Shown here piece after piece: positions 42,476-55,187 of a DNA stretch of 64,000 nucleotides (the stretch's first letter is position 1; each line of letters opens with the position of its first letter). Origin of the DNA: Lachnospiraceae bacterium (lineage in GTDB: Bacteria > Bacillota > Clostridia > Lachnospirales > Lachnospiraceae); contig JAAWEK010000008.1 of assembly GCA_022794265.1 (NCBI GenBank), positions 124,001 to 188,000 of the forward strand. Direction: 5' to 3'. Under the pieces are notes generated by a model. The model was not told the DNA's origin. It did not search any database and saw only the letters and a list, made by a program, of their open reading frames with translations. The position numbers and the translations under genes are program-made.

Positions 42476-43249
42476 ATGGTAGAAAACTTATTTAGGGAAC
42501 TTTGTGCACTGGATCAGATAGAAGCTCTGGCATTGGGCGGATCCCGTGCTGGGAAACATTTTGACGAAGCTTCAGATTATGATGTATATCTTTATTGTAC
42601 AGAGCCAGTGCCGGAAACTATCCGGCGAGAGATACTGTCACGGTATTGTTCTGTTATGGAGATAGGAAACAAGTATTGGGAGGAAGAAGATAATTGCCAG
42701 TTAATGAATGGTATAGACATTGACATTCTTTACCGGAATCTGGACGATTTTTCTGCAGGGATTGCCGCAGTGGTGGAAGGGTTTCAGGCACACAACGGAT
42801 ACACTACCTGTATGTGGCATAACTTGCTTAATTGCAAAATAATTTATGACCGTGACGGCCGTATGGGAAGGGTAAAGGCGCAATTTTCTGTGCCTTATCC
42901 GCCACAGCTTCGGGAAAACATTATCCGCCGGAACTGGAATCTTCTCCACGCAGCACTACCAGCTTATGACGGACAGATTGGGAAAGCCGTAAAGCGTGGG
43001 GATATTGTCAGCATCAGCCATCGCACAGCGGCATTTTTAGAATCTTATTTTGATATTTTGTTTGCCCTGAACAATATTACACATCCGGGGGAAAAGCGCA
43101 TGATGCAGTTATGTCGGGAGCAGTGCTGCCTTTTGCCGGAATGTTTTGAAGAAAGAATACAGAAACTATTGTGTGATTTGCATACAGTACCACAGCGCAC
43201 ACCGGAAAATTTGGAGGCTATTGTAACGGCATTGGAGAAAATTCTTTAG
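42476..43249 (+). CDS. DUF4037 / Pol-beta-type nucleotidyltransferase
   Basis: A 257-residue protein with the nucleotidyltransferase signature ALGGSRAGKHFDEASDYDVY: G21-G22-S23 and the metal-binding aspartates D34 and D36; a third acidic position may be in GIDIDILYR. The C-terminal helical part fits DUF4037. Relatives include aminoglycoside-nucleotidyltransferase-like enzymes, so antibiotic or tRNA/small-molecule nucleotidylation is possible. Part of the gene is duplicated at 39942-40026. Confidence 0.82.
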   Translation: MVENLFRELCALDQIEALALGGSRAGKHFDEASDYDVYLYCTEPVPETIRREILSRYCSVMEIGNKYWEEEDNCQLMNGIDIDILYRNLDDFSAGIAAVVEGFQAHNGYTTCMWHNLLNCKIIYDRDGRMGRVKAQFSVPYPPQLRENIIRRNWNLLHAALPAYDGQIGKAVKRGDIVSISHRTAAFLESYFDILFALNNITHPGEKRMMQLCREQCCLLPECFEERIQKLLCDLHTVPQRTPENLEAIVTALEKIL

Positions 43250-43491
43250 GGTTGGGGAAAGAGTTTGAATTGAAAGTTGAATAAATACTTTTCACGATAA
43301 GTAGTAATATTCCCTTGACAGAAGGAAATAATACACTAAGTAGTTTTTTTTGTATTGTGTTGCACGATGGTTTTGAGGATAAGTTGTTCCGTTTGGGGAT
43401 TATTGTTGATGTCTGCCCCAGGTATAACCACATAACTAAATAGCAGCCATGAAAAATGGCTTAATATTATACAGGAAAGAAGGGGTAAGAG

Positions 43492-44490
43492 ATGGTAGCA
43501 GGACATAATTTAAAAGCGGGGCTATATGATGACAGAACTGTATCCGAAGATGAATTATGGTCTGCTTTTAGTTATTTATTTTCTACGCAGTCAAAGAATT
43601 CTACAAGCTACAAGTTTGGCTTTTTGAAAGCATTGATTGATAATTTATATAATGTTAATGAGAATCTTGTTCTTACATTTGACCAGGTATTTTCAAAGTT
43701 TGCAGAAAGTTACTGGAATCTTGTATTAAAATACGGAATCAGACAACAACCTGTTATTAAAGGCAAGAGTGCCACTGTTCTTGAAAGTGTTTTACATTCT
43801 GCAGTTGAAAAATATGGTATATCGGCAGAAGTACCATTTGAAAGCCTTACCGATGAGATGAAATTGTACATATGTGTGAATGTAAAACGTAAATGTAAAG
43901 TAAATGTGGTGGGTGCACTTTATGGAGATTTACAAGGGTTGATTTATTCATTTTCAAAAAGAGAAGAATGGATTCAATTTAGTCCGTATATGTATGAATT
44001 TTTGTGTAAGCATAAGCTTGTTATTGAAAAAATGAATTACTATGAGTGGGCAAGATATATGGAAAAAGTAAATGATGATTCGGTGCTTGACCATTTACTT
44101 ACGAAAATCGAGATATGTACTCAGAGAAATAATTTATCTGTATACAGACATATTTTATTTGACGAGTTTGAGAGTAAGGAATGTTTTTATTGTGGAAAGC
44201 CGCTTAGAAAAGATGCTATTCATGTGGATCATTTTATTCCATGGTCATTTATTAAAGATGATCAGTTATGGAATTTTGTTTTAGCTTGTCCGGGATGTAA
44301 TGAATCAAAGAATGATAAACTGCCTGCTATAATATACCTGGAACGGATAATAGAGAGAAACAGTAGTGATATCTTATTGAAATATACCAATATGTTCACA
44401 AATTATAAAAGTCAGAAAATGCGTCATATATATAATTGGGCGGTAACAAATGGATATAATACAATTTGGACACCATCAGGAAAAAAATAA
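43492..44490 (+). CDS. Stand-alone HNH endonuclease
   Basis: A 332-residue protein whose C-terminal quarter is an HNH domain: C231-x-x-C234 (FYCGKP), H244-V-D-H247, N261, then C266-x-x-C269-N270 and K276. Two CxxC pairs would bind zinc. The N-terminal 200 residues are helical and unrecognised and could give target specificity. No methylase or other restriction partner is nearby. An orphan restriction-type or defence nuclease is the best guess; a homing endonuclease is less likely since there is no intron or intein. A strong terminator follows. Confidence 0.82.
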   Translation: MVAGHNLKAGLYDDRTVSEDELWSAFSYLFSTQSKNSTSYKFGFLKALIDNLYNVNENLVLTFDQVFSKFAESYWNLVLKYGIRQQPVIKGKSATVLESVLHSAVEKYGISAEVPFESLTDEMKLYICVNVKRKCKVNVVGALYGDLQGLIYSFSKREEWIQFSPYMYEFLCKHKLVIEKMNYYEWARYMEKVNDDSVLDHLLTKIEICTQRNNLSVYRHILFDEFESKECFYCGKPLRKDAIHVDHFIPWSFIKDDQLWNFVLACPGCNESKNDKLPAIIYLERIIERNSSDILLKYTNMFTNYKSQKMRHIYNWAVTNGYNTIWTPSGKK

Positions 44491-44536
44491 TATGATTTAA
44501 AGGCAGATATGTCTTTTTAAATTATTTTACTATTTT

Positions 44537-44576
44537 ACATATCTTCTAAAAGCAATTTTAGAAGATGTGTTTTTTT
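44537..44576 (+). terminator. Strong rho-independent terminator
   Basis: Fifteen-bp arms (44537-44551 and 44556-44570, one G-U) around GCAA, then six T. It insulates the agr locus from the HNH gene. Confidence 0.88.
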
Positions 44577-44600
44577 ATACCTTAAACAACATTCATATAG

Positions 44601-44630
44601 ATTTCGCCTCAGAGTATGCGAATTTCGCCC
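44601..44630 (+). promoter_or_regulatory. Direct-repeat site for a LytTR (AgrA-type) regulator
   Basis: ATTTCGCCT at 44601-44609 and ATTTCGCCC at 44622-44630: two 9-bp direct repeats 12 bp apart, a 21-bp period. LytTR regulators such as AgrA and ComE bind 9-bp direct repeats with just this spacing. A TATTAT at 44659-44664 without a clear -35 box lies 28 bp downstream, as at activator-dependent promoters. Confidence 0.65.
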
Positions 44631-44705
44631 TTAGATAAAAATCGTAACAAAATTGTAGTATTATGTAGTTACAAGTCAAAAAAACATGAAAGAGAGGATA
44701 TTATC

Positions 44706-44852
44706 ATGAAAAAAAATACAAAAAAAAGTTTTACAACAGTAATTGAAAAGATTGCGTTTAAAATTGCAGCAGAAGATGCAAATTCAGCATGTCCATGTAT
44801 TTCATACCAGCCTAAATTGCCAAAGTCTGTGAAAAAACTGAGAAAATTTTAA
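44706..44852 (+). CDS. agrD: AgrD-type cyclic autoinducer precursor peptide
   Basis: Forty-eight residues from ATG 44706 (GAGAGG at 44691-44696). It has the three-part AgrD plan: an amphipathic N-terminal helix (TVIEKIAFKIAAEDAN), a short core with cysteines (SACPCISY, Cys29 and Cys31), and a charged C-terminal recognition tail (QPKLPKSVKKLRKF). AgrB cleaves before the tail and closes a thiolactone ring from a cysteine. Two cysteines make the ring size ambiguous. Its stop overlaps the agrB start (TAATG). Confidence 0.85.
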   Translation: MKKNTKKSFTTVIEKIAFKIAAEDANSACPCISYQPKLPKSVKKLRKF

Positions 44853-45418
44853 TGGAACATAATATGACAGATTTAGAAAAAAGAGAAATTATTGACTATG
44901 GATTATATCGTTTGAAAATAATTCTTATCAGCATTGTGACGACTTTATTGTTGGGCTGGATTCTGGAGATTTTTGTACAAAGCGTCTGTTTTTTGCTGGG
45001 GTTCCTGGCAATCAGGCGATATGCAGGAGGATACCATGCCAAAACACAAAAAATCTGCTTCCTGATTTCTTTTTTAGTATTATGTATCAGTTTTCTGATT
45101 TTTCGAAGCTTTGAGCAAAGGGATATGGGAATCGTATTTGTTGCAAATATATTATACAGTATTTTTATCTGGTATCTGGCCCCTGTGGATAATCCCAATA
45201 AGAGATTAGATTATGCCGAATCAGAGAAATATAGAATATGTGTAAGAAAAGTCCTGCTCATAGACAATCTTATCTTAGTAATGATGTATGAAATGAGACA
45301 AAGTAATATCTTTTTTGGTATTTCAATTTCTATATGGATTACTTGTATTGCAGTAGTTGCCGGCAGGATTGTTCACCAGGCTGACAGTACAATTCAATTG
45401 TCAGATGAATATCAGTAG
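44852..45418 (+). CDS. agrB: AgrB-type autoinducer-processing membrane peptidase
   Basis: A 188-residue polytopic membrane protein with about five or six helices. The catalytic region is FLAIRRYAGGYHAKTQKICF: His62 and Cys69 form the dyad that cleaves AgrD and makes the thiolactone. Length and motif are typical. Start ATG 44852 overlaps the agrD stop, so translation is coupled; ATG 44864 is an alternative. Acts in the cytoplasmic membrane. Confidence 0.92.
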   Translation: MEHNMTDLEKREIIDYGLYRLKIILISIVTTLLLGWILEIFVQSVCFLLGFLAIRRYAGGYHAKTQKICFLISFLVLCISFLIFRSFEQRDMGIVFVANILYSIFIWYLAPVDNPNKRLDYAESEKYRICVRKVLLIDNLILVMMYEMRQSNIFFGISISIWITCIAVVAGRIVHQADSTIQLSDEYQ

Positions 45419-45533
45419 TAACATGCCAGGTGCATGAAGCTATAAATAACAAAATAAGGGAGGGGGACAGAGCGTTACAAAACCGGTTTTTTTGTTTAGC
45501 ATAAATGCGTAAAATAAACAATGAAAGCCAAAA

Positions 45534-45560
45534 ACTGTTTGGTATCAGTACATAAACAGT
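45534..45560. promoter_or_regulatory. Inverted repeat upstream of the secreted-protein gene
   Basis: ACTGTTT (45534-45540) and AAACAGT (45554-45560) with a 13-bp spacer. Position (54 nt before the start codon) suits an operator; no clear -35/-10 pair was found with it. AAGGAG at 45599-45604 is the ribosome site. Confidence 0.35.
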
Positions 45561-45614
45561 ATTACCAGAAAAATGGTCAAAGGACCAAAAAATTATTTAA
45601 GGAGATGAATTATT

Positions 45615-46061
45615 ATGAAAAAAATTCAAAAAGTTGCATTAGCATTAGCTTCCAGCCTTATTATGGCATCAACTTCTGTGACAGCGTTTGCTACACCAAA
45701 TACGAAAGACACAGACCTTCCAACAGAATCTGTCAGCTATACTAAAAATGTCACGACAGGGGTCCGTGCTAAAACCAATACCACGCCTGTTTATATGAAT
45801 AACCAAAGTGGAATGACTTTATGGGTTTATGCAAACGGAGGAAGTAAACCTTCCAGCATTTCAGTAACATACAATACTGGTACAACAATAGGTACTTATG
45901 CAAAGGTTAAACCGGGCAAATATGTAATTCATACTACCATCTATGAGGATGGTTACCGGAAAGCATGGCTGAATATTTCCACTGGTGTAAACGGTGTTTC
46001 CGGTAAGTGCAAAGGTGTTTGGAGTCCGGATACTGCCGGCTCTTATCCGTCAGCAAACTAA
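45615..46061 (+). CDS. Small secreted protein of the agr locus
   Basis: A 148-residue pre-protein. The Sec signal (MKKIQKVALALASSLIMAST … AFA) is probably cut after residue 26. The mature 122 residues are beta-rich, with many Thr/Tyr/Asn/Gly and four Trp/aromatic clusters (GMTLWVYANGG, KPGKYVIHTTIYEDGYRKAW, CKGVWSPD), one cysteine and no anchor motif. The layout recalls small exported proteins called DUF2712 that sit beside ABC transporters, and bacteriocins of the lactococcin 972 type, but I could not confirm either. It is followed by a transporter set and preceded by agrDB. A secreted toxin, signal or surface protein is possible. Confidence 0.7.
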   Translation: MKKIQKVALALASSLIMASTSVTAFATPNTKDTDLPTESVSYTKNVTTGVRAKTNTTPVYMNNQSGMTLWVYANGGSKPSSISVTYNTGTTIGTYAKVKPGKYVIHTTIYEDGYRKAWLNISTGVNGVSGKCKGVWSPDTAGSYPSAN

Positions 46062-46155
46062 ACTGAAATAATTGAGAGGGTATAATTCACCAGATTATAC
46101 CCTTTCGATATAAATAGATGATAAATCATCGGTGCGGAATAGGGAGATTAAATCT

Positions 46156-47034
46156 ATGCTTTGGAATAATATAAAGATAGAATGTAAAAAGGCAGTGGGG
46201 ACAAGATTGTTTTTATTTGTGGTGTTAACAGGCTGTATCATTACAATGTTCAGTCTGGTGCCCTGTGTGCAGAGTTATAATCGGTATATCACTTCTTTAA
46301 AATATCTTTCGGAAAAAATTACTTATACCCGAAATCCAATGATGCCATCACAGACATTATTTAATTACTGGATTGGAAGCGAGGCAATTACGCCCGGCTC
46401 TACTAACTATTTTTTTCTTTTTCCAATTTTGGTAAGCCTTCCTTATGGCTGGTCCTACTGCATGGAACGGCGCAGCGGATATATTCAGAATGTTGTGGTA
46501 AGAACCGGAAAATGGCGTTATTATTTCTCAAAATATATTGCATTGTTTTTGTCCGGCGGTTTGGCAATGGTTATCCCTTTACTTTTTAATTTTCTGCTTA
46601 CGGCCATGTTTGTTCCGGCCATCACTCCGGACCCATATTTTATTACCAGTTATGGAATAATTTCATCTTCATTTCTGTCAGAGTTTTTTTATACCAGACC
46701 GTTTCTATATGTTTTTCTTTATTTAATGGTTGATTTTATATATTGCGGACTGATTGCCTGTCTGTGTGCTGCTTTTGCTGCGTTTGTAAAAAATCATGTT
46801 ATGGTTGTATTACTGCCGTTTATTGCTTTATTAGGGTTTCATTATTTTTGTTATTCATTTGTTTATACGTCCAGTGATGTAGTCTATACTGAATTATCCC
46901 CGATGAATTTCCTGCGGGCAGTGCCGGCCGGCTATGACACCAATGGTTTTGTTGTTTTTACGGGTGCAGTTTTCCTTCTGCTGTTTATTTTAATCTCAAC
47001 GGTTGTAAGGGAGGTAGCCAATGAAGTATATTAA
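46156..47034 (+). CDS. ABC-2-like membrane permease (first of two)
   Basis: A 292-residue membrane protein with six hydrophobic segments and a large extracytoplasmic loop between the first two (NRYITSLKYLSEKITYTRNP). This is the plan of ABC-2 type permeases in bacteriocin export/immunity transporters. ATG 46156 with GGGAG (46140-46144) is preferred to a GTG at 46132. It overlaps the second permease gene by 14 nt. With the second permease and the ATPase at 47901 it forms one exporter or immunity pump. Confidence 0.75.
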   Translation: MLWNNIKIECKKAVGTRLFLFVVLTGCIITMFSLVPCVQSYNRYITSLKYLSEKITYTRNPMMPSQTLFNYWIGSEAITPGSTNYFFLFPILVSLPYGWSYCMERRSGYIQNVVVRTGKWRYYFSKYIALFLSGGLAMVIPLLFNFLLTAMFVPAITPDPYFITSYGIISSSFLSEFFYTRPFLYVFLYLMVDFIYCGLIACLCAAFAAFVKNHVMVVLLPFIALLGFHYFCYSFVYTSSDVVYTELSPMNFLRAVPAGYDTNGFVVFTGAVFLLLFILISTVVREVANEVY

Positions 47035-47887
47035 AATGGTATGGTTTGATATACGAAGGGGAATCCTTCGTAATCCCATATTGTTTGTTGTTCCGGTAAT
47101 TGTTGCCTTTATTGCCTGCTGTGATTTAAATAATCGGATTGTAGCACAGAATGAATGGATTGCTTACGAATCAAATAGCTGTGAAACTCAGATAAAGGGA
47201 GGATTTGCAGACTACATGATGTACATTTATGGTGGTATGGATAAATATGTTCCCGAATCGGGTAATTATTTTATTTTTCCTATAAGGTGGATGGTTGTTT
47301 TTTTAATGATATCTTTTATTACGTTAAGTTACCCGTATAAAGATATGCAGGGATTTGGCCGGCAGATTTTAATCAGAACAAGGGGTCGGACAATATGGTG
47401 GCTGTCCAAGTGCATATGGAATATATTTAGTGTTCTGATATACCATAGCGTTATTTTTGGCATTGCAGCCTTATTTGGTATTGCTGTTGGAAGCGGTATC
47501 ACCGGTAAAATAAACAAAGACCTGCAATATGAAGTGTTTCAGATAGCCGGAGATTCCCTTTTATCTGATGATATGTCATGGCCATTTGTTATAATTCTTC
47601 TTCCGGTTCTGATTTCACTGAGTATCAATTTGCTGCAAATGACGTTATCTTTGTTTATTAAACCGATATTCAGCTTTTTAATTGCAGCATTTTTAATGAT
47701 ATCTTCCGCATATTTTACATCACCCTATTTGATTGGAAATTATGCAATGTCTATGCGGTATGATATGGTTATTGAAGATGGTGTCTCTGTCACTGCCGGT
47801 CTGGTTGTTGCGTTCGTGTTAATGATTTTGTCTGTTGGCACAGGTATGATTCGGTTCCGAAGATATGACATTTGTAACGAAGATTAG
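47021..47887 (+). CDS. ABC-2-like membrane permease (second of two)
   Basis: A 288-residue membrane protein with about six helices and, like its neighbour, a long loop after the first helix (EWIAYESNSCETQIKGGFAD). The two differ enough to be a heterodimer. GGGAGG at 47008-47013 supports ATG 47021. It ends 13 nt before the ATPase start, with GGAGGGAG between. No similarity to a named exporter could be fixed from sequence alone. Confidence 0.75.
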   Translation: MKYIKMVWFDIRRGILRNPILFVVPVIVAFIACCDLNNRIVAQNEWIAYESNSCETQIKGGFADYMMYIYGGMDKYVPESGNYFIFPIRWMVVFLMISFITLSYPYKDMQGFGRQILIRTRGRTIWWLSKCIWNIFSVLIYHSVIFGIAALFGIAVGSGITGKINKDLQYEVFQIAGDSLLSDDMSWPFVIILLPVLISLSINLLQMTLSLFIKPIFSFLIAAFLMISSAYFTSPYLIGNYAMSMRYDMVIEDGVSVTAGLVVAFVLMILSVGTGMIRFRRYDICNED

Positions 47888-47900
47888 GAGGGAGTTTTTC

Positions 47901-48557
47901 ATGATAAATATAGAAATAAAAAATGTTACAAAAATTATACATAGACAGACAGTCATTCAGAATGTATCAGCTTCCATGCAATCCGGTAAGATATATGGTT
48001 TTCAGGGGGTAAATGGTTCAGGGAAAACTATGCTGATGCGGTTGGTTTCCGGATTGATTCGTCCGACCCGGGGAAGTATAAAAATCAATGGAAAGGTTTT
48101 GGGCAGGGATATCACGTTTCCGGAAAGTATTGGTCTGTTTTTGGAAAAACCTGCATTTTTAGGCGCCTATTCAGGTTTTCAAAATTTGAAAATGCTTGCT
48201 TCTATCCAAAATAAAATTGATGATACTAAAATTCGTGATACCCTTTCCGCTGTCGGATTGAATACTGATGATAGGAAAAAATACCGTAAATATTCTTTAG
48301 GTATGAAACAGCGTCTGGGCATTGCGGCTGCTATTGTTGAGGAACCGGAACTTATTATTTTGGATGAACCCACCAACTCTCTGGATACCGATGGAATAGA
48401 TTTGGTGAAAACAATCCTTCTTTCACAAAGAGAACGGGGAGCATTAGTCATTATTTCCTGTCATGACCTTTCTGTATTGCAAAAGATGTCGGATGAAATT
48501 TTATTGCTGGAATCCGGTAGGATTGCCAAACATTTGATGGCGCCTGATTTTAACTGA
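47901..48557 (+). CDS. ABC transporter ATP-binding protein
   Basis: A 218-residue ATPase from ATG 47901 (AGGAGGGAG at 47887-47895). Walker A is GVNGSGKT (36-43), the signature SLGMKQR (132-138) instead of LSGGQ, Walker B LIILDEP (151-157) and the H-loop His188. The SLGMKQR variant is typical of ATPases for ABC-2 exporters of bacteriocins and drugs (BcrA/LanF type). It energises the two permeases upstream. Confidence 0.93.
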   Translation: MINIEIKNVTKIIHRQTVIQNVSASMQSGKIYGFQGVNGSGKTMLMRLVSGLIRPTRGSIKINGKVLGRDITFPESIGLFLEKPAFLGAYSGFQNLKMLASIQNKIDDTKIRDTLSAVGLNTDDRKKYRKYSLGMKQRLGIAAAIVEEPELIILDEPTNSLDTDGIDLVKTILLSQRERGALVIISCHDLSVLQKMSDEILLLESGRIAKHLMAPDFN

Positions 48558-48578
48558 TGGATGGTGAAAGGAGAGATA

Positions 48579-49163
48579 ATGAAAAAAATATTATATTTTT
48601 CACTGATAGTTGTTTTGACATTTGCCTGGGGCATAAGATTTTATTTGGTGAATCGTGAGATTGACCTTCCGGTTGCTCTGGTGTTTCAAAAAGGAGAAGA
48701 AGTTCCAATTGAAAAAGATTTTTTTATCAATTCAGATGAGGGGATGGACGGTTATAATGTTACTGTTTTGGATGCAGAGTTAGTTTCTGTGGAAAACTTT
48801 TTACAAAGTTATAATGCAGTCGAAGAGGCTGAAAACATTGGAAGTTTTACGGATTATATATATATGGTCAGGGTTTCCTTTGGTAATCAGAACAATCCTT
48901 TTATTAATGAGAAAGGAATTGATTTACAGGTTTATTACTTGAAAGGAACGGATTATGTACTAAGTCTGGAAGATACCTGCTACCGGATTGCCAATCCTGA
49001 TATGCCGGGGACATCATTTTCCCTTAGGCAGGGAACTGATATGGAACTGATATTACCGTTCAGTGTTATGTCTTCTCAAACCAGCCGGAAACATGTACTG
49101 GATGACACGCCGAAACTGCAGATATCTTTATACCCTCATCAGAAATTAATTAAATTATATTAA
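48579..49163 (+). CDS. Membrane-anchored accessory protein (DUF5028-like)
   Basis: About 194 residues from ATG 48579 (AAAGGAGAG at 48566-48574). One N-terminal helix (ILYFSLIVVLTFAWGIRFYL) anchors a beta-rich extracellular domain that opens VNREIDLPVALVFQKGEEVP. It resembles, from memory, DUF5028 proteins, which accompany similar ABC exporters in Firmicutes. No lipobox. Likely an accessory or immunity-type partner of the transporter. It ends the plus-strand operon; a large hairpin separates it from the convergent kinase gene. Confidence 0.65.
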   Translation: MKKILYFSLIVVLTFAWGIRFYLVNREIDLPVALVFQKGEEVPIEKDFFINSDEGMDGYNVTVLDAELVSVENFLQSYNAVEEAENIGSFTDYIYMVRVSFGNQNNPFINEKGIDLQVYYLKGTDYVLSLEDTCYRIANPDMPGTSFSLRQGTDMELILPFSVMSSQTSRKHVLDDTPKLQISLYPHQKLIKLY

Positions 49164-49200
49164 TAAGACTGCAGGGAAGGCTGAAAATAGAACATAATTA

Positions 49201-49253
49201 TTAGGTGAAAGCGAAACTTCCGATCGGTGACTATGAGTTTCGCAATCACCTAA
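49201..49253. terminator. Long hairpin between convergent agr genes
   Basis: TTAGGTGA (49201-49208) pairs with TCACCTAA (49246-49253); after an AA/AA internal loop GCGAAACT (49211-49218) pairs with AGTTTCGC (49236-49243). CATAATTA outside the stem recurs on both sides. No clean T-run, so it may be a bidirectional terminator or a structured RNA element. Confidence 0.6.
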
Positions 49254-49259
49254 ACATAA

Positions 49260-50543
49260 TTATGTGAGAAGGGCGCTTTCCTGCGAACCCGTATATAACA
49301 TAATTTTTATATCAAAAATATTATTTTTATCAGATATTTCTATATTTCCGTTATACTTTTTAACAACCCTTTTCACATTCTGCAATCCTATGCCATGTTT
49401 GGCTTTGTTCTTCTTTGTAGTTAAATAGATTTCGTCTCTTTTTTTCAGTGTTCCTTCGTAACTGTTTTGAATATTTATAAATAACATTCCTTTATCATAA
49501 TGAACAAAAACCGATAGCCACTTACGACTGGAACAAACGGCTGCCAGTATTGCGTTTTCCAATAAATTTCCAAAAATAACATTCAAATCAAAAGAAAGAA
49601 TGTTGATATCTTTTGGTATACTGATTTTATATTCTATTTCCTTCAAAGATTCCTGTGCTTTATATAACATATAATTTAATATGCTGTCAATCTCCATGTT
49701 TCCACTGCAGGAAAATTCCTTGTTATTTTCCATAAACATCTGCATATTTTGTATGTATTCAGCAATTTCCTGTTTACTTTGCCTGCCGGTTGCCATAATT
49801 AGTAATTCATTCAGGTGATGTTTCATATCATGATGTAAGGAACTTATTTTCTTTTCCGATTGCATTAATACATCCACTTGATTAGCATAACAGGCAATTT
49901 TTCTCTCATATAAAGAATTTTTTTCTAATTTTATATATGTATCCAACAACGCATTATATAAATAAAATATCAGCATATTAATGAATAAAATTCCCGCACT
50001 GACTTGTATCAGGATTATTTGATTATTGAGATTGTTCATCAATAAGCAAAACAGCATAACTATGCTTATTACAGGTATTAAAATTAAAATATTCCAATGA
50101 GGCGGTGTAAAATCTACCCCTCTTTTTTTGAGTATGAACTTTTCTATAATGAATTCACAAATATTAATTATCAGAACAGTTATATATGCCGCTATTTTAT
50201 TATAATCGCCTCCCACTATGTAATTAGAAAAAGAGTAAATTGAAATAATGTCACATGCCATATTGATTCCATATATCAGAATGGAAACTAATATTTTTTT
50301 AATTTGTTCTCCTTCGTATATTATTTGTGCAATCAGATAAATCATCAGCAGATTAATTGCTATATTGGCCGGCGGAAAATGAAAAGACAAATAAACCACT
50401 GTTGTTATAAAATAAAAAAGAAAATAAATGAAATTTTCTTTTCCATTATTTTCTTTTTCTTTGGTAAAAAAAATAGATATAAATTTTTTTATGATTAAAG
50501 TTCTAAACAAATTTGTGATTAACGCAGTTATAACATCCGACAT
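49260..50543 (-). CDS. agrC: AgrC-type sensor histidine kinase
   Basis: A 427-residue kinase. About six transmembrane helices occupy residues 1-200, the domain that senses the cyclic peptide. A helical linker leads to SSLHHDMKHHLNEL with His238 as phosphoacceptor, then the N-box FGNLLENAILAA and the G-box GIGLQNVKRVVKKYNG of GHKL kinases. It lacks a classical HisKA domain, as is normal for AgrC. The start ATG 50543 follows the regulator stop by 1 nt, so the two are co-transcribed. Confidence 0.9.
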   Translation of the reverse strand: MSDVITALITNLFRTLIIKKFISIFFTKEKENNGKENFIYFLFYFITTVVYLSFHFPPANIAINLLMIYLIAQIIYEGEQIKKILVSILIYGINMACDIISIYSFSNYIVGGDYNKIAAYITVLIINICEFIIEKFILKKRGVDFTPPHWNILILIPVISIVMLFCLLMNNLNNQIILIQVSAGILFINMLIFYLYNALLDTYIKLEKNSLYERKIACYANQVDVLMQSEKKISSLHHDMKHHLNELLIMATGRQSKQEIAEYIQNMQMFMENNKEFSCSGNMEIDSILNYMLYKAQESLKEIEYKISIPKDINILSFDLNVIFGNLLENAILAAVCSSRKWLSVFVHYDKGMLFINIQNSYEGTLKKRDEIYLTTKKNKAKHGIGLQNVKRVVKKYNGNIEISDKNNIFDIKIMLYTGSQESALLT

Positions 50544-50544
50544 A

Positions 50545-51270
50545 TTATTTTAGTTTCTCCCATTCACGTTGTATCATCTGATTTTTTACTGTTTTTCTGT
50601 AAGGCAGGCTTATACTCAATAATGCTCCATTTTGCATTTTCATCCATTCATAGGAACACTTAGCCACAAAATCCAGGTTAACCAAATAAGACTGATGTAT
50701 CATACAGAAATTGTGTGGCACAATATTCGCAATTTCTTTTAACTTCCCGTTAAACTGCATTTCTTCATTACTAAAAACAATATTTATTTTTTTGTTCTGG
50801 CTGTAAAAATATAGAATATCCTTAAAACAAACTTTGGAATAGCCGCCCTGTGCTTTTGAATAGTATTCAAAAAACTGATTTTTCTTTTCATAAATTCTTA
50901 CACACCGGTTCATTACATCATCTATCATTTTTTGATTTAAGGGTTTGATTAGGAAATCAAAGGGCTGAATACGAAACAGACTCATTGCATAATTACTCTT
51001 TGAAGAAATATAAATAATCAAAGTTTCTAGGTTCTCCAATTCTTCTCTTATAAAACTACCGATTTTAATTCCGTCTGTACTTATTAATTCGATATCCAGA
51101 AAAAGTATATCCAATGTAGTTTCTTTTTTCAAAAAAGTACAAAGGCTTTCTCCGGTATACCAAATACTTACTTCAATATTTATACTTTGTTTTTTGCTAA
51201 AAGCATAAAGCATATTTTCCAATTCCCCACAGGTTCCTTTTTCATCATCACAAATTCCAATATAAAACAC
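50545..51270 (-). CDS. agrA: AgrA-type response regulator with LytTR domain
   Basis: About 241 residues from GTG 51270, which has GGGAGG 7 nt upstream; ATG 51285 lies before that ribosome site and is less likely. Receiver domain with acidic pair in CDDE, phospho-Asp59 in LFLDIELI, and KP near residue 109. The C-terminal LytTR domain includes YFYSQNKKINIVF and HQSYLVNLDFVAKC. It should bind 9-bp direct repeats such as 44601-44630. Preceded by its own promoter at 51328-51300. Confidence 0.92.
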   Translation of the reverse strand: MFYIGICDDEKGTCGELENMLYAFSKKQSINIEVSIWYTGESLCTFLKKETTLDILFLDIELISTDGIKIGSFIREELENLETLIIYISSKSNYAMSLFRIQPFDFLIKPLNQKMIDDVMNRCVRIYEKKNQFFEYYSKAQGGYSKVCFKDILYFYSQNKKINIVFSNEEMQFNGKLKEIANIVPHNFCMIHQSYLVNLDFVAKCSYEWMKMQNGALLSISLPYRKTVKNQMIQREWEKLK

Positions 51271-51299
51271 ATTATAACCTCCCATATTTTTTGTTCTAT

Positions 51300-51328
51300 A
51301 TTTTACCGCTTTTTTTCTGATTTTTCAA
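51300..51328 (-). promoter_or_regulatory. Promoter for agrA-agrC
   Basis: On the minus strand TTGAAA (51328-51323), 17-bp spacer, TAAAAT (51305-51300). Confidence 0.6.
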
Positions 51329-51349
51329 TTGCACATTAGGGGTTGGTTT

Positions 51350-51520
51350 TATATCAGATTGTTATTGATAAAGTATGGCATGAACTGGCCTTCGGTTTGG
51401 AAAGTCTGGGAAATGATGCGCCTGCCATACGGCGCCATGTAGCGGAACCGGCGTACTTTTTCGGGATACAGAACTGGTTTTACAAGAATGTGACGGAACT
51501 TTCAGGTGGACCGAATTAAA
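51350..51520 (+). other. Unassigned gene fragment between agrA and the CBM26 gene
   Basis: In one frame the segment reads KVWHELAFGLESLGNDAPAI and then AYFFGIQNWFYKNVTELSGG to a stop at 51517. It looks protein-coding but has no start or ribosome site, and I cannot name the family. Probably the tail of a deleted gene. The rest of the 349-nt gap holds the two promoters. Confidence 0.35.
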
Positions 51521-51571
51521 GTGAAGTATGGATTGGCGGAGTAATTTGATGAAAAAAGAAAGTATATGCAG

Positions 51572-51601
51572 TTGACAGATATTGTAAAAAAATAATATAA
51601 T
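51572..51601 (+). promoter_or_regulatory. Promoter for the CBM26/BspA gene
   Basis: TTGACA (51572-51577), 18-bp spacer, TATAAT (51596-51601), 33 nt before the start codon; AAGGAGG at 51619-51625. Near consensus, so no activator is needed. Confidence 0.75.
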
Positions 51602-51634
51602 AACACAAAAATAACAAATAAGGAGGAACAAACT

Positions 51635-53353
51635 ATGAGGAAAAACAGAAGGATTTTTGCCGTTTTTTTATCATTTATGCTGGCAATCGGAATGTTTGCA
51701 GGCATTGGATTTGAAACTGAGGCAATAGCATCAACAGGGGTTACTACCATATACTTTGATAATTCCGTTTGCGGATGGTCGGAAGTATATGCCTATGTAT
51801 GGGGGGAGGATATCAGTGCAGCTCTGATTTCAGGAACGAAGTCGGCAGATACATATGAATTTCATATTCCTGGGCAGTATACAAAAATATTATTTAAAAA
51901 TACATCAGGAATCAATAACTGGGACAAACAGACCGCTGATACGGATATGCCGGCTACATCGGGATATATATTTATTCCTGACAGTGCCCAGAATCAGACG
52001 GGAGGAAGCTGGAGGCTACACTCTGGTGATGTGGAGAAGCCGGCAACGGTAACAAAATATTTTAATAATTCCAGAACCGGATGGTCGGAAGTATATGCCT
52101 ATGTATGGGGAACCGATACCGGTGCGGAAGTGATAGCAGGAATAAAGGTATCCGAAACCATATACAGGTTTCATATTCCGGTGCGTTACACAAAAATATT
52201 ATTTAAAAATACTCCGGGTATGAACAGCTGGGACAAACAGACAGCGGATACATATATTTTGGCAGAAATGCAGAATTGTTACATGCCAAACAGCGGGGAT
52301 AACAAAACCGATGGATACTGGTATGTATATTCAGATGATTCGGAAGAACTGGCGGATAACTGGGATTATGATATAAGCGGAAATACCATCAGCCTGAATG
52401 ATTATATTGGAACGGATACGGAAGTAACGGTTAAAGACTATTATTATATCAACGATGTAAAGTATAAAACAAAGTTTCCTTATTCTGGAGGTTACAGGGG
52501 TCCGTTTATCGGAAACCAGGACATTACAAAGGTAACTTTTAACGGTACCGGGATGTTGACCGATGATTCTGTACCATATTTATTTTATCAATGCCGGTCA
52601 TTAACAACAGTGGTGGGATTCGGCGGAAACTTCACGAATATGAATAATACATTCCGGTATTGTTCCGTGCTGGATTGCCCGATTACGATTCCTGCCAGTG
52701 TGACTTCGGCAGAGTTTGCATTTTATGAATGTTACAAACTGTCCACAATGCCTGTGCTTCCAAGGGATTCTCAATTGCGGACAGCAAACAGTATGTTTTA
52801 TTTTTGTCTGGAACTGCAGGCGGATTCAATATTCATGCCGAAGAATCTGACCAGTATGAATTCTATGTTTTATTATTGCAAAAAGCTGGATGCAGATAAT
52901 ATCATTATTCCAGACAGTGTGACAGAGGCAGCATATGCATTCGGTACTTGTGAAAGCCTGAGAGTATTACCTGTTATCAGAAAATCTTCCAGACTGAAAA
53001 ATACTACGGGAATGTTTAGCGGATGTATTAAAGCCTCTACAGGAAATCTGTATTTACCGGAAACGGTTACAGAAGCCTCTTATATGTTTAACAATTGCTC
53101 TATGCTGGGACATTACTCCGGTACCGGATTTTATTTACATTCATATATAGATGCCACATCAGCGGTTATGACGAATATATTTAATAAAGTAGGCTATTTT
53201 GTCCATACAGGGGCAGAAGGGGCATATGGATATGAAGACTGCATCGTTTATGTGGAAAACGCTTCTTCAACTACTGATGCACAATACACGGCTATGGCGG
53301 CATATGTTAACCCTTCTTATATGACCATTCGGCTGGGTACCGAAAGAAACTGA
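51635..53353 (+). CDS. Secreted protein with two CBM26-like modules and BspA-like repeats
   Basis: A 572-residue exported protein: Sec signal of about 33 residues, then two tandem copies of a starch-binding-like module (IYFDNSVCGWSEVYAYVWGE … YTKILFKN … WDKQTAD, and a second starting YFNNSRTGWSEVYAYVWG), at about 37-130 and 140-230. The Trp-rich pattern matches CBM26, which binds starch in amylases. Residues about 290-500 are irregular BspA/LRR_5-like repeats (MFYYCKKLDADNIIIPDSVT and similar, roughly 23 residues each). No glycosidase domain, sortase signal or S-layer motif. An adhesin or starch-associated surface factor is a reasonable inference. Confidence 0.8.
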   Translation: MRKNRRIFAVFLSFMLAIGMFAGIGFETEAIASTGVTTIYFDNSVCGWSEVYAYVWGEDISAALISGTKSADTYEFHIPGQYTKILFKNTSGINNWDKQTADTDMPATSGYIFIPDSAQNQTGGSWRLHSGDVEKPATVTKYFNNSRTGWSEVYAYVWGTDTGAEVIAGIKVSETIYRFHIPVRYTKILFKNTPGMNSWDKQTADTYILAEMQNCYMPNSGDNKTDGYWYVYSDDSEELADNWDYDISGNTISLNDYIGTDTEVTVKDYYYINDVKYKTKFPYSGGYRGPFIGNQDITKVTFNGTGMLTDDSVPYLFYQCRSLTTVVGFGGNFTNMNNTFRYCSVLDCPITIPASVTSAEFAFYECYKLSTMPVLPRDSQLRTANSMFYFCLELQADSIFMPKNLTSMNSMFYYCKKLDADNIIIPDSVTEAAYAFGTCESLRVLPVIRKSSRLKNTTGMFSGCIKASTGNLYLPETVTEASYMFNNCSMLGHYSGTGFYLHSYIDATSAVMTNIFNKVGYFVHTGAEGAYGYEDCIVYVENASSTTDAQYTAMAAYVNPSYMTIRLGTERN

Positions 53354-53389
53354 AAGAATTCTAAAGAACAGAGATTTGATAAAAGATAT

Positions 53390-53424
53390 AAAAAAGTCAG
53401 CAGAACGAGCCTGCTGACTTTTTT
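53390..53424. terminator. Bidirectional terminator
   Basis: Fourteen-bp perfect arms (53390-53403 and 53411-53424, containing GTCAGCAG / CTGCTGAC) around a 7-nt loop, A-run on the left and T-run on the right, between convergent genes. Confidence 0.9.
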
Positions 53425-53435
53425 ATTTAAATATC

Positions 53436-55187
53436 TTAATCTAAATTTATACGATTTCCAGAAGACCGGTTATTATTATACCTGTTTCCCATATTCTGGT
53501 TTCCAGAAGCATATTCTTCCCTAAGAATGAATTTTGCCACCAGATTTTTAAGCATGGAAGCCTGGTTTGAAAGTTCCTGACTGGCAGAAGCGCTTTCCAC
53601 TGCAGTAGCTGAATTGGTCTGTACTACAGTAGAAATCTGGTCCACACCTACGGTAACCTGCTCGATGGCGTTTGACTGCCGCTCAGCGGCTTCAGCGATT
53701 AAATCAACTTTGTCTGCTGCCATACGAACACCCTCAACAGCTTTCAGTAAAGACTGGTTGGTGGAATCGGCAAGCTGCGTACCCAGCGCTACGGCTTTGA
53801 TAGAACTTTCGATTAATTCAGCAGTAGTTTTGGCAGCTGCTGAACTCTTGCTGGCCAGGTTACGCACTTCATCGGCAACCACAGCGAATCCTTTTCCGGC
53901 GCTGCCTGCCCGGGAAGCTTCCACGGCAGCATTAAGGGCCAGAATATTCGTCTGGAATGAAATATCTTCAATGGTTTTAATAATTTTGCCGATTTCATTG
54001 GAGGTACGTGTTATTTCCTCCATAGCTGTCATCATATCCTGCATCTGGGTGTTGCAATCTTCCATTTCGTCACCAGCTATACCCGACTGGTTTCTTGCTT
54101 CTAAAGCATTTTTGGCCGTATCTTTTACCTGATGAGAAATACCTGTAATGGTGGAGGCCAGCTCTTCCACGGCGGAAGCCTGCTGGGTTGCTCCCTGTGA
54201 AAGGGCCTGTGCACCGTTGGATACCTGACCGGAACCGGCGGCAACCTGGTCTGCACTCTGGTTAATCTGTCCCAAGGTAGAGCTTAAGTCACGGTTCAGT
54301 TTTCGGATGGATAACAATAAACTCTGGAAACTTCCTATATACCGTTCTTCCGCTTCTGTACGGACATCGAAATTACCGTCTGCCATTTCACTTAAAAGTC
54401 TGGAAGCATCGGAAATTACTGATTCCAGAATTACGGTCATATTTTTAAATGAATTTGCCAGAACTCCCAGTTCATCTTTAGACTGATATGTAATATCAAT
54501 ATCAAAATTACCTTCAACAATTTTCTTTGCGGAGCGTTCCAGTTCATACAATGGCCGGGTAATATTTCTTGTAAGATATGTAGAAATAAAAAGTGTAATG
54601 ACCAGTGTACCTCCTGCCATGATTAATTGTAATGTTACCAGATTTTTCTGCATGGAAGCGGTATTTTCATAATCATTTTCGGCGTTTTGCTCCGCTGCAT
54701 TACTGATTTGTATCAGCGTATTCACTGCTTCCTCCAGCAGAGGCTGGTATTCGTTCAGCAGTATTTCCCTTGCTTTTGGTTTATCTGTCTGAGCAGTATT
54801 GATTACGGTTTCCTGCAGTTCCATTACCTTTGTAATATTTGCGGCAAAAGATTCTAACAGTTGAGGTTCGTTCTTAAAATTTTCAAACAGCCAGGTGGCA
54901 TTGTCTTCCAGTAATTTCAGCTCTTTTTGCATATCCTCTAAATAAGTCTGGCTTTTCGATGAATCTTCCTCGATTGTAATGAATGTAAGGTCTTTTACGA
55001 TAATCTGCAGACCGCGGCGCATATTCATAATATTATTTGTAATACGGTATCCGACATGATAAAAATCCGAATATTTATCGGCGTTTTCCCGCAATCCTGA
55101 GATGGCGGTTATAACGGTTCCGCAAAATAATAGAATGATAAGCATAAATGTTAACAAAAGTTTTTTTCCGATTCGTAAGTTTTTCAT
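53436..55187 (-). CDS. Methyl-accepting chemotaxis protein
   Basis: A 583-residue receptor. Transmembrane helices at about 9-30 and 188-206 flank an extracytoplasmic four-helix-bundle sensor rich in Asn/Glu. A HAMP domain follows ([20 protein letters not shown]), then the cytoplasmic signalling coiled coil with the hairpin tip EISFQ-type sequence [20 protein letters not shown] and [12 protein letters not shown]. It signals to CheA/CheW, so the organism is probably motile. No CheW-binding oddities; the tail is Asn-rich and lacks a methylation-enzyme pentapeptide. Confidence 0.95.

What the first reader, a model, noticed from the sequence alone, without database searches (positions are those of the whole stretch)
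44601..51328. Complete agr-type quorum-sensing locus enclosing a secreted protein and its own ABC transporter
AgrD-AgrB are followed without a terminator by a small Sec-secreted beta-rich protein, two ABC-2-like permeases, an ATPase and a membrane-anchored accessory protein; AgrC and AgrA converge from the other side. In known agr loci the four agr genes stay together; here a secretion/immunity-like module lies between the peptide and receptor halves. This suggests peptide-controlled deployment of an exported protein (toxin, bacteriocin or signal) with a dedicated pump. The agr parts are directly recognisable; the role of the secreted protein is inference.
Basis: partly seen in the sequence, partly recalled or inferred. 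Interest (0 to 1): 0.75.

Follow-up and report, generated by a model that had tools for sequence, protein, structure and literature searches.

The report
Quorum-sensing operon with bacteriocin-like secreted protein
A bacterium of a gut-associated family carries a cell-density sensing system wired into the same stretch of DNA as a small exported protein and a self-protection-like membrane pump, and the same partnership recurs in related bacteria, which suggests a little-known class of density-triggered antibacterial protein that still has to be tested.

Summary
In detail: agrD, agrB, a 148-residue secreted-type protein (S148), two ABC-2 permeases, an ATPase and a DUF5028 protein run on the + strand; agrC-agrA converge on the - strand. 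S148 is a divergent DUF2712 member; no paper in the held open-licence library names DUF2712, DUF5028 or DUF2705. The cassette recurs in Lachnospiraceae, on plasmids, in Bacilli and in Collinsella. Agr linkage is recurrent: agrD lies just 5' of S148 on the same strand (directly or with agrB between) in 11 of 45 loci, on scattered branches; 9 AgrB-S148 pairs within 4 kb against 0.15 expected. 25 of 45 loci show no agr-type gene in the fetched flanks. Direct repeats 20-21 bp apart precede agrD in 7 of 11. A strong hairpin follows S148 in 24 of 34. The ATPase is nearest LanF, below its cut-off. Of 19 permease loci fetched for want of a nearby S148, 17 indeed have none. Best reading: an agr-controlled, Sec-exported bacteriocin-type protein, with the ABC and DUF5027/DUF5028 proteins as immunity rather than exporter. 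Regulation is well supported; antibacterial action and immunity are inferred; no fold could be predicted. New variant of a known kind.

The parts
44537..44577 (+). intrinsic terminator-like site of the upstream gene, ahead of the agr transcript
   Evidence: (15-bp stem + T run)
44601..44629 (+). direct repeat ATTTCGCC-N13-ATTTCGCC, 21 bp start to start: candidate AgrA (LytTR) operator of agrD
   Evidence: alone P 0.23, pooled test; only exact copy in the genome
44706..44852 (+). agrD, autoinducing peptide precursor (48 aa; likely 6-residue ring CPCISY)
   Evidence: TIGR04223 45.2 bits; ring inferred from alignment with relatives
44852..45418 (+). agrB, peptide-processing membrane protease
   Evidence: PF04647 E 7e-33
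45615..46061 (+). S148: secreted-type DUF2712-like protein with C-terminal GxWSPD motif; proposed bacteriocin-type effector
46071..46109 (+). hairpin with 17-bp stem, no U-tract, directly after S148; proposed expression-balancing or mRNA-stabilising element
   Evidence: z -7.5; recurrent in position
46156..47034 (+). ABC-2-type permease 1
   Evidence: no Pfam match itself, 3 of 12 aligned members match ABC2_membrane_4
47021..47887 (+). ABC-2-type permease 2 (weak DUF2705), related to permease 1
47901..48557 (+). ABC ATPase, closest to LanF self-protection ATPases
   Evidence: TIGR03740 181 bits, cut-off 310
48579..49163 (+). membrane-anchored DUF5028 protein, related to the DUF5027 lipoproteins of sister loci
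   Evidence: PF16431; hhalign
49201..49253 (.). hairpin between the converging units, possibly a two-way terminator
49260..50543 (-). agrC, GHKL-type receptor histidine kinase
   Evidence: PF14501 E 2e-23
50545..51285 (-). agrA, response regulator with LytTR DNA-binding domain
   Evidence: PF00072, PF04397

Best explanation
The locus is a quorum-controlled bacteriocin-type system. AgrB matures AgrD into a cyclic peptide; at high density it activates AgrC-AgrA; AgrA binds the 21-bp-spaced repeats upstream of agrD and raises an agrD-agrB-S148-ABC transcript. S148 leaves through Sec and is cut by signal peptidase. The hairpin after S148 keeps its mRNA more abundant than the downstream part. The two permeases, the LanF-like ATPase and the anchored DUF5028 protein (in many sister loci also DUF5027 lipoproteins) protect the producer and its induced neighbours, as LanFEG and LanI do. 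Shown: gene content, recurrence with agrD, repeats, hairpin, cassettes without S148. Inferred: AgrA binding, read-through from agrB, Sec export, antibacterial action, immunity role.
For: agrD just 5' of S148, same strand, in 11 of 45 loci (TIGR04223 above cut-off for 8 of the 11). 9 AgrB-S148 pairs within 4 kb in 29 genomes against 0.15 expected. The linkage label is scattered over the S148 tree (9 changes for 10 rows, at least 3 forced) and the AgrB tree (8 changes for 10 of 35 rows, at least 4 forced). Direct repeats of at least 8 of 9 at 20-21 bp upstream of agrD in 7 of 11 loci, none of 500 shuffles as many. Hairpin after S148 with z below -2 in 24 of 34 loci against 32 of 118 other gene pairs; 4 of the 24 have a T-tail. 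ATPase nearest TIGR03740 in 6 of 6 tested. 17 of 19 permease-2 loci fetched because one search gave no S148 near them indeed show none; 15 of the 17 have both permeases and the ATPase. In L041 and L187 S148 is broken while cassette genes stand. Plasmid-borne cassettes in Vescimonas, Collinsella and Carnobacterium.
Against: No antibacterial activity or fold is known; S148 has no PDB match better than E 0.88, no Lcn972 match and no PADLOC match. The ATPase is far below the LanF curated cut-off and the window permeases match no lantibiotic permease model. 25 of 45 loci have no agr-type gene in the fetched flanks; the nearest S148 (L029, about 70% identical) and the same-genus genome G182 have none there. 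L045 has agrD-agrB-S148 but no ABC genes beside it. In the window alone the repeat is not significant (P 0.23), upstream of S148 without agr such repeats occur in 6 of 25, and the genome-wide pattern is no commoner than its reversed control. Cassettes without S148 could serve other partners, and the order of gain and loss is unknown.
Confidence: 0.58

Rival explanations
1. The ABC transporter is a dedicated exporter or maturation device for S148, comparable to the phenol-soluble modulin exporter Pmt; immunity is secondary.
For: Conserved gene neighbourhood in Clostridia, Bacilli and Collinsella; second-best NCBIfam match of the window ATPase is PmtC.
Against: S148 relatives carry an N-terminal signal-like stretch (by eye, no predictor run); LanF is nearer than PmtC in 6 of 6; 17 of 19 fetched permease loci without S148; L045 has S148 without ABC genes beside it.
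Confidence: 0.2
2. S148 is a non-toxic exported factor (matrix, adhesion, host-facing or second signal) under agr control, and the ABC and DUF5027/5028 proteins sense or recycle it.
For: In C. acetobutylicum an agr-linked gene (LanM-like CA_C0082) acts on granulose and sporulation, not killing (PMC10301443, abstract and section 3.1). AgrC/AgrA-type pairs without a detected AgrB/AgrD lie by the cassette in 8 of 45 loci.
Against: LanF-like transporter type, S148 broken with cassette kept in two loci, plasmid carriage, tandem copies; all indirect.
Confidence: 0.2
3. The cassette merely landed in the agr locus and is not regulated by it.
For: 25 of 45 cassettes show no agr gene in the fetched flanks; neighbours of some include PadR-like, DeoR-like (by sequence, recalled) and sigma-factor genes.
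Against: Recurrent, co-directional agrD-S148 pairs above chance, on scattered branches.
Confidence: 0.05

Closest known systems
agr-type quorum sensing (agrBDCA; C. acetobutylicum agr with LanM-like effector CA_C0082, PMC10301443: abstract, passages, section 3.1)
   Same: AgrD, AgrB, GHKL AgrC and LytTR AgrA; an effector gene coupled to agr; six-residue ring (inferred here)
   Different: The coupled gene is a secreted-type DUF2712-like protein with an ABC cassette, placed just after agrD/agrB; LanM-type genes were found beside S148 in two sister loci tested (L033, L081)
Lactococcin 972-like loci, e.g. streptococcin B scbABC (PMC11796350, passages)
   Same: Sec-secreted unmodified bacteriocin with putative immunity and transporter genes, under peptide quorum sensing, with strains that lack the functional bacteriocin
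   Different: No PF09683 match; DUF2712-like, WSPD tail, two permeases and DUF5027/5028 proteins; agr rather than competence control
Lantibiotic immunity LanFEG + LanI (review PMC8538875, passages)
   Same: One ATPase, two related permeases, anchored or lipoprotein partner; ATPase nearest TIGR03740
   Different: Below the curated cut-off; the presumed partner is not a lanthipeptide; accessory proteins are DUF5027/DUF5028
Fsr-controlled enterocin O16 of Enterococcus faecalis (PMC5454873, abstract start in search listing)
   Same: agr-family system controlling a secreted bacteriocin
   Different: There the bacteriocin gene is unlinked (recalled); here it follows agrD-agrB on the same strand

Membership tests
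agr quorum-sensing system | AgrD precursor | tested here: met
   TIGR04223 45.2 bits, cut-off 19
agr quorum-sensing system | AgrB | tested here: met
   PF04647 114 bits, cut-off 23; His and Cys seven apart in GGYHAKTQKIC (motif recalled)
agr quorum-sensing system | GHKL AgrC and LytTR AgrA | tested here: met
   PF14501, PF00072, PF04397 over cut-off
agr quorum-sensing system | activator repeats about 21 bp apart upstream of the agr promoter (spacing recalled) | tested here: inconclusive
   pooled: 7 of 11 agrD upstream regions, none of 500 shuffles; window alone P 0.23
agr quorum-sensing system | peptide activates the operon | not testable with these tools
   needs culture
DUF2712 (PF10916) | profile score over cut-off | tested here: inconclusive
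   window protein 20.3 bits, cut-off 22; 15 of 24 members of A4 match at E up to 1, best 1e-34; the Amphibacillus genome G790 gives no PF10916 match at E 0.001
Lactococcin 972 (PF09683) | profile match | tested here: not met
   none among 24 members at E up to 1
LanFEG lantibiotic immunity | LanF ATPase over curated cut-off | tested here: not met
   181 bits, cut-off 309.75
LanFEG lantibiotic immunity | two related ABC-2 permeases beside it | tested here: met
   hhalign 88.8%; but no LanE/LanG model match
Lanthipeptide | Cys-rich precursor with Lan synthetase in the locus | tested here: not met
   one Cys in window S148; no Lan synthetase among the 15 window proteins scanned

The most novel reading that the evidence does not exclude
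DUF2712-like proteins with the WSPD tail are a large unrecognised class of Sec-exported antibacterial proteins in Bacillota and Actinomycetota, with their own immunity (LanF-like ABC, DUF5027, DUF5028), that different agr systems have captured repeatedly by placing the toxin gene just behind the signal gene; strains that lack an intact toxin but keep signal and immunity (L041, L189) act as protected eavesdroppers.
Probability: 0.4. Interest if true: 0.8.

Novelty: new variant of a known kind. Interest (0 to 1): 0.62.

Why it matters
Agr loci are common in the cassette-bearing genomes (46 AgrB matches in 16 of 29 genomes), but what they control in gut Lachnospiraceae is mostly unknown (my knowledge). 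If the reading is right, the signal gene itself points to its effector, which gives a testable function for DUF2712, DUF5027 and DUF5028 proteins and a way to find density-triggered antibacterial proteins in commensals such as Coprococcus catus.

Tried and rejected
PDB profile searches of S148, permease 1 and DUF5028: nothing better than E 0.88. S148 as lanthipeptide precursor: considered because LanM-type proteins lie beside S148 in L033 and L081 (of the other large neighbours tested, L087 is a pyruvate:ferredoxin oxidoreductase and L093 has only weak NTPase matches; L090 was not tested); rejected because Cys is scarce. A wider AgrA regulon from the ATTTCGCC repeat: one exact site, 35 sites with up to 3 mismatches against 50 for the reversed control. 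Rfam: no match in 43000-53500. Phages: one unannotated 6.3-kb record, not pursued. Pfam's Bacillus subtilis control genome rings for DUF2712; the gene was not identified. No signal-peptide predictor was available; the signal is judged by eye.

Controls that weakened a first result: the first hairpin comparison (32 of 50 against 4 of 37 and 4 of 49) used downstream stretches of permease 1 and ATPase genes, mostly coding, as control; one search repeats it on intergenic pairs (24 of 34 against 32 of 118). In the repeat test shuffles keep base composition only, and the region for L085 was chosen by hand around its agrB start, since agrB precedes agrD there.

Rows dropped: L030, L031, L034, L038, L042 as duplicates of L016, L017, L018, L020, L021; L015 (second agr locus) is not among the 45. 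Of the 32 genomes, three with the weakest matches (G024, G053, G076) were left out of the 29-genome count; G053 later proved to hold a broken S148 (L187). Of 26 permease-2 matches without S148 near, 19 were fetched and 7 were not; G053 was fetched as a twentieth. Several loci are cut by contig ends, so absences there are weak.
Full report
Observation. The window holds agrD-agrB, a 148-aa secreted-type protein (S148), two permeases, an ATPase and a DUF5028 protein on the + strand, and agrC-agrA on the - strand, ends facing. The unit is preceded by a terminator-like site and followed by a hairpin before agrC. The 196-nt agrB-S148 gap has no terminator-like site on the + strand but is structured (z -2.3), so read-through from agrB is likely, not shown. 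The genome (2.88 Mb, 34 contigs) has a second AgrB on C9, with AgrA and AgrC and no cassette gene labelled in the 14 kb looked at. The family is Lachnospiraceae by inference: same-family genomes G025 and G141 have contigs of the same length as named Coprococcus catus and Lachnoclostridium records.

What S148 is. Pfam gives DUF2712 just under the cut-off (20.3 against 22 bits), and 15 of 24 aligned relatives match DUF2712 at E up to 1, best 1e-34. Relatives show an N-terminal signal-like stretch (by eye) and G-x-W-S-P-D near the C-terminus, invariant in the 24 of alignment A4 but changed in some more distant ones such as L089, L092, L093 and L094. A single-sequence search found relatives in 11 of 299 same-family genomes, the own one included; the 24-row profile found 32 of 397 (of its three weakest, G053 proved a broken S148, G024 and G076 were not checked). 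A named scan gave 17 loci, among them Coprococcus catus, Ruminococcus bromii, Amphibacillus and Miniphocaeibacter. Plasmid copies lie in Vescimonas, Collinsella aerofaciens and, in tandem, Carnobacterium. A DUF2712 search of 150 genomes of the order of Amphibacillus found 5, each with ABC permease and ATPase genes beside the gene.

The cassette. In 45 distinct loci annotated with home-made profiles, 34 show permease 1, permease 2 and ATPase with S148; of the other 11 most are cut by contig ends, but L045 has none of these genes beside S148. Many also have a lipoprotein (DUF5027 in the three tested) and DUF5028; the window lacks the DUF5027 gene. DUF5028 and DUF5027 are related (hhalign 93.5%), as are the permeases (88.8%). 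The ATPase is nearest the lantibiotic-protection subfamily TIGR03740 in 6 of 6 tested (148-181 bits, cut-off 310). One ATPase, two related permeases and an anchored or lipoprotein partner is the make-up of LanFEG plus LanI. The review PMC8538875 (passages) describes NisI binding nisin and NisFEG expelling it and apparently recognising its C-terminus; by analogy, and as inference, the WSPD tail may be what this transporter recognises.

Agr linkage. An AgrD profile run on 16163 short six-frame fragments of the loci (ten seed peptides, nine of them from these loci and one from the second agr locus) puts agrD just 5' of S148 on the same strand in 11 of 45: window, L016 (C. catus), L041 (S148 broken), L045, L075, L079, L080, L082, L085, L093, L094; agrB lies between in the window, L045 and L094. 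TIGR04223 confirms 8 of the 11 over its cut-off; L016, L093 and L082 fall below, and the L082 peptide (E 0.11) has no Cys at the ring position. AgrB lies within 4 kb in 10 of 45 (these 11 less L041). A further 8 (L033, L037, L039, L040, L081, L089, L090, L091) have AgrC- and AgrA-type genes only, and L026 a LytTR regulator only; these profiles match GHKL/LytTR pairs generally. 25 of 45 have none in the fetched flank (a weak AgrA-type match 5 kb away in L035 is not counted). In 29 cassette genomes, 46 AgrB matches (45 over the cut-off) and 35 S148 matches give 9 pairs within 4 kb, 0.15 expected (P 7e-14; 2e-5 if the expectation is raised tenfold). On the S148 tree (47 rows) the agrD label needs 9 changes for 10 rows, at least 3 forced by starred branches, and is no more clustered than shuffles (the L041 fragment was too short to include). 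On the AgrB tree (35 rows, 10 linked, 25 other) the linked ones need 8 changes, at least 4 forced. Both are quick trees with long branches and modest support, so the number of captures is unsure, but a single origin is unlikely.

Regulation. Upstream of agrD the window has ATTTCGCC twice, 21 bp apart, the spacing that LytTR activators use (recalled). Alone this is not significant (P 0.23). Over 11 upstream regions, repeats of at least 8 of 9 occur at exactly 21 bp in 6, at 20-21 bp in 7, against a shuffle mean of 1.3 and none of 500 as high; the next best spacing reaches 3 of 11; upstream of S148 in loci without agr it is 6 of 25. A three-mismatch version of the window repeat, one of 35 such sites in the genome, lies 57 bp before the second agrB.

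Hairpin. Directly after S148 lies a 17-bp stem (46071-46109, z -7.5) without a U-tract. Among S148 genes followed by a same-strand gene 40-300 nt on, 24 of 34 have z below -2, against 32 of 118 other pairs (Fisher P 1e-5); 4 of the 24 have a T-rich tail. Such elements can keep the first product of an operon abundant; this points to S148 as a major product of the unit (inference).

Immunity or export. A profile of permease 2 gives 55 matches in 41 of 397 genomes. By my comparison, 29 lie near an S148 match and 26 do not. I fetched 19 of the 26, and G053 with its weak match. Of the 19, 17 show no S148 even with a sensitive six-frame profile, and L185 and L197 have divergent intact ones; G053 (L187) has a broken one. 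15 of the 17 have both permeases and ATPase; 5 (L182, L189, L191, L195, L196) have agrC- and agrA-type genes, and L189 has agrD and agrB too. In L041 S148 survives only as two tail fragments while the other cassette genes are open. Cassettes without the secreted protein fit immunity better than dedicated export, though some may serve other partners and the order of gain and loss is unknown. Streptococcin B is a parallel: a Sec-secreted lactococcin 972-like bacteriocin under peptide control, with strains that lack the functional peptide (PMC11796350, passages).

Literature. No held paper contains DUF2712, DUF5028 or DUF2705, and none combines Coprococcus catus with quorum sensing and autoinducing peptide. 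For agr with bacteriocin, cyclic lactone autoinducer and Lachnospiraceae two papers came up; the passages seen do not describe this module. The nearest is the agr-linked LanM-like effector of C. acetobutylicum. A search for surveys of AgrD context listed three papers, that one among them. These searches cover only open-licence papers.

Verdict. A real, recurrent module. My estimates: agr control of S148 about 0.85; antibacterial role of S148 about 0.65; immunity rather than export for the ABC about 0.65.

Noticed in passing
window 43492-44490 +: HNH endonuclease (PF13395, PF01844; weak PtuB- and Cas9-HNH-like PADLOC matches) directly upstream of the agr terminator.
   Followed up: partly
window 51635-53353 +: 572-aa secreted-type protein with weak CBM26 and DUF285 matches behind a TTGACA-18-TATAAT match, next to agrA; no agr repeat seen by the repeat finder upstream.
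   Followed up: partly
L033 6681-9824 and L081 634-3636: Full-length LanM-type proteins (DUF4135 + LANC_like) beside S148 and AgrC-type genes.
   Followed up: partly
L189 2407-9900: AgrA, AgrB, AgrC and a Cys-less AgrD (perhaps a Ser lactone) leading into the ABC cassette with no secreted protein found.
   Followed up: partly
L197 1256-9491: Repeated units of S148-like protein, a 340-aa one-TM protein and permease 1 in one locus; tails diverged from WSPD.
   Followed up: no
L145 1396-4998 (NZ_CP084005.1, Collinsella plasmid): Five-gene cassette on a 30-kb plasmid of an actinomycete.
   Followed up: partly
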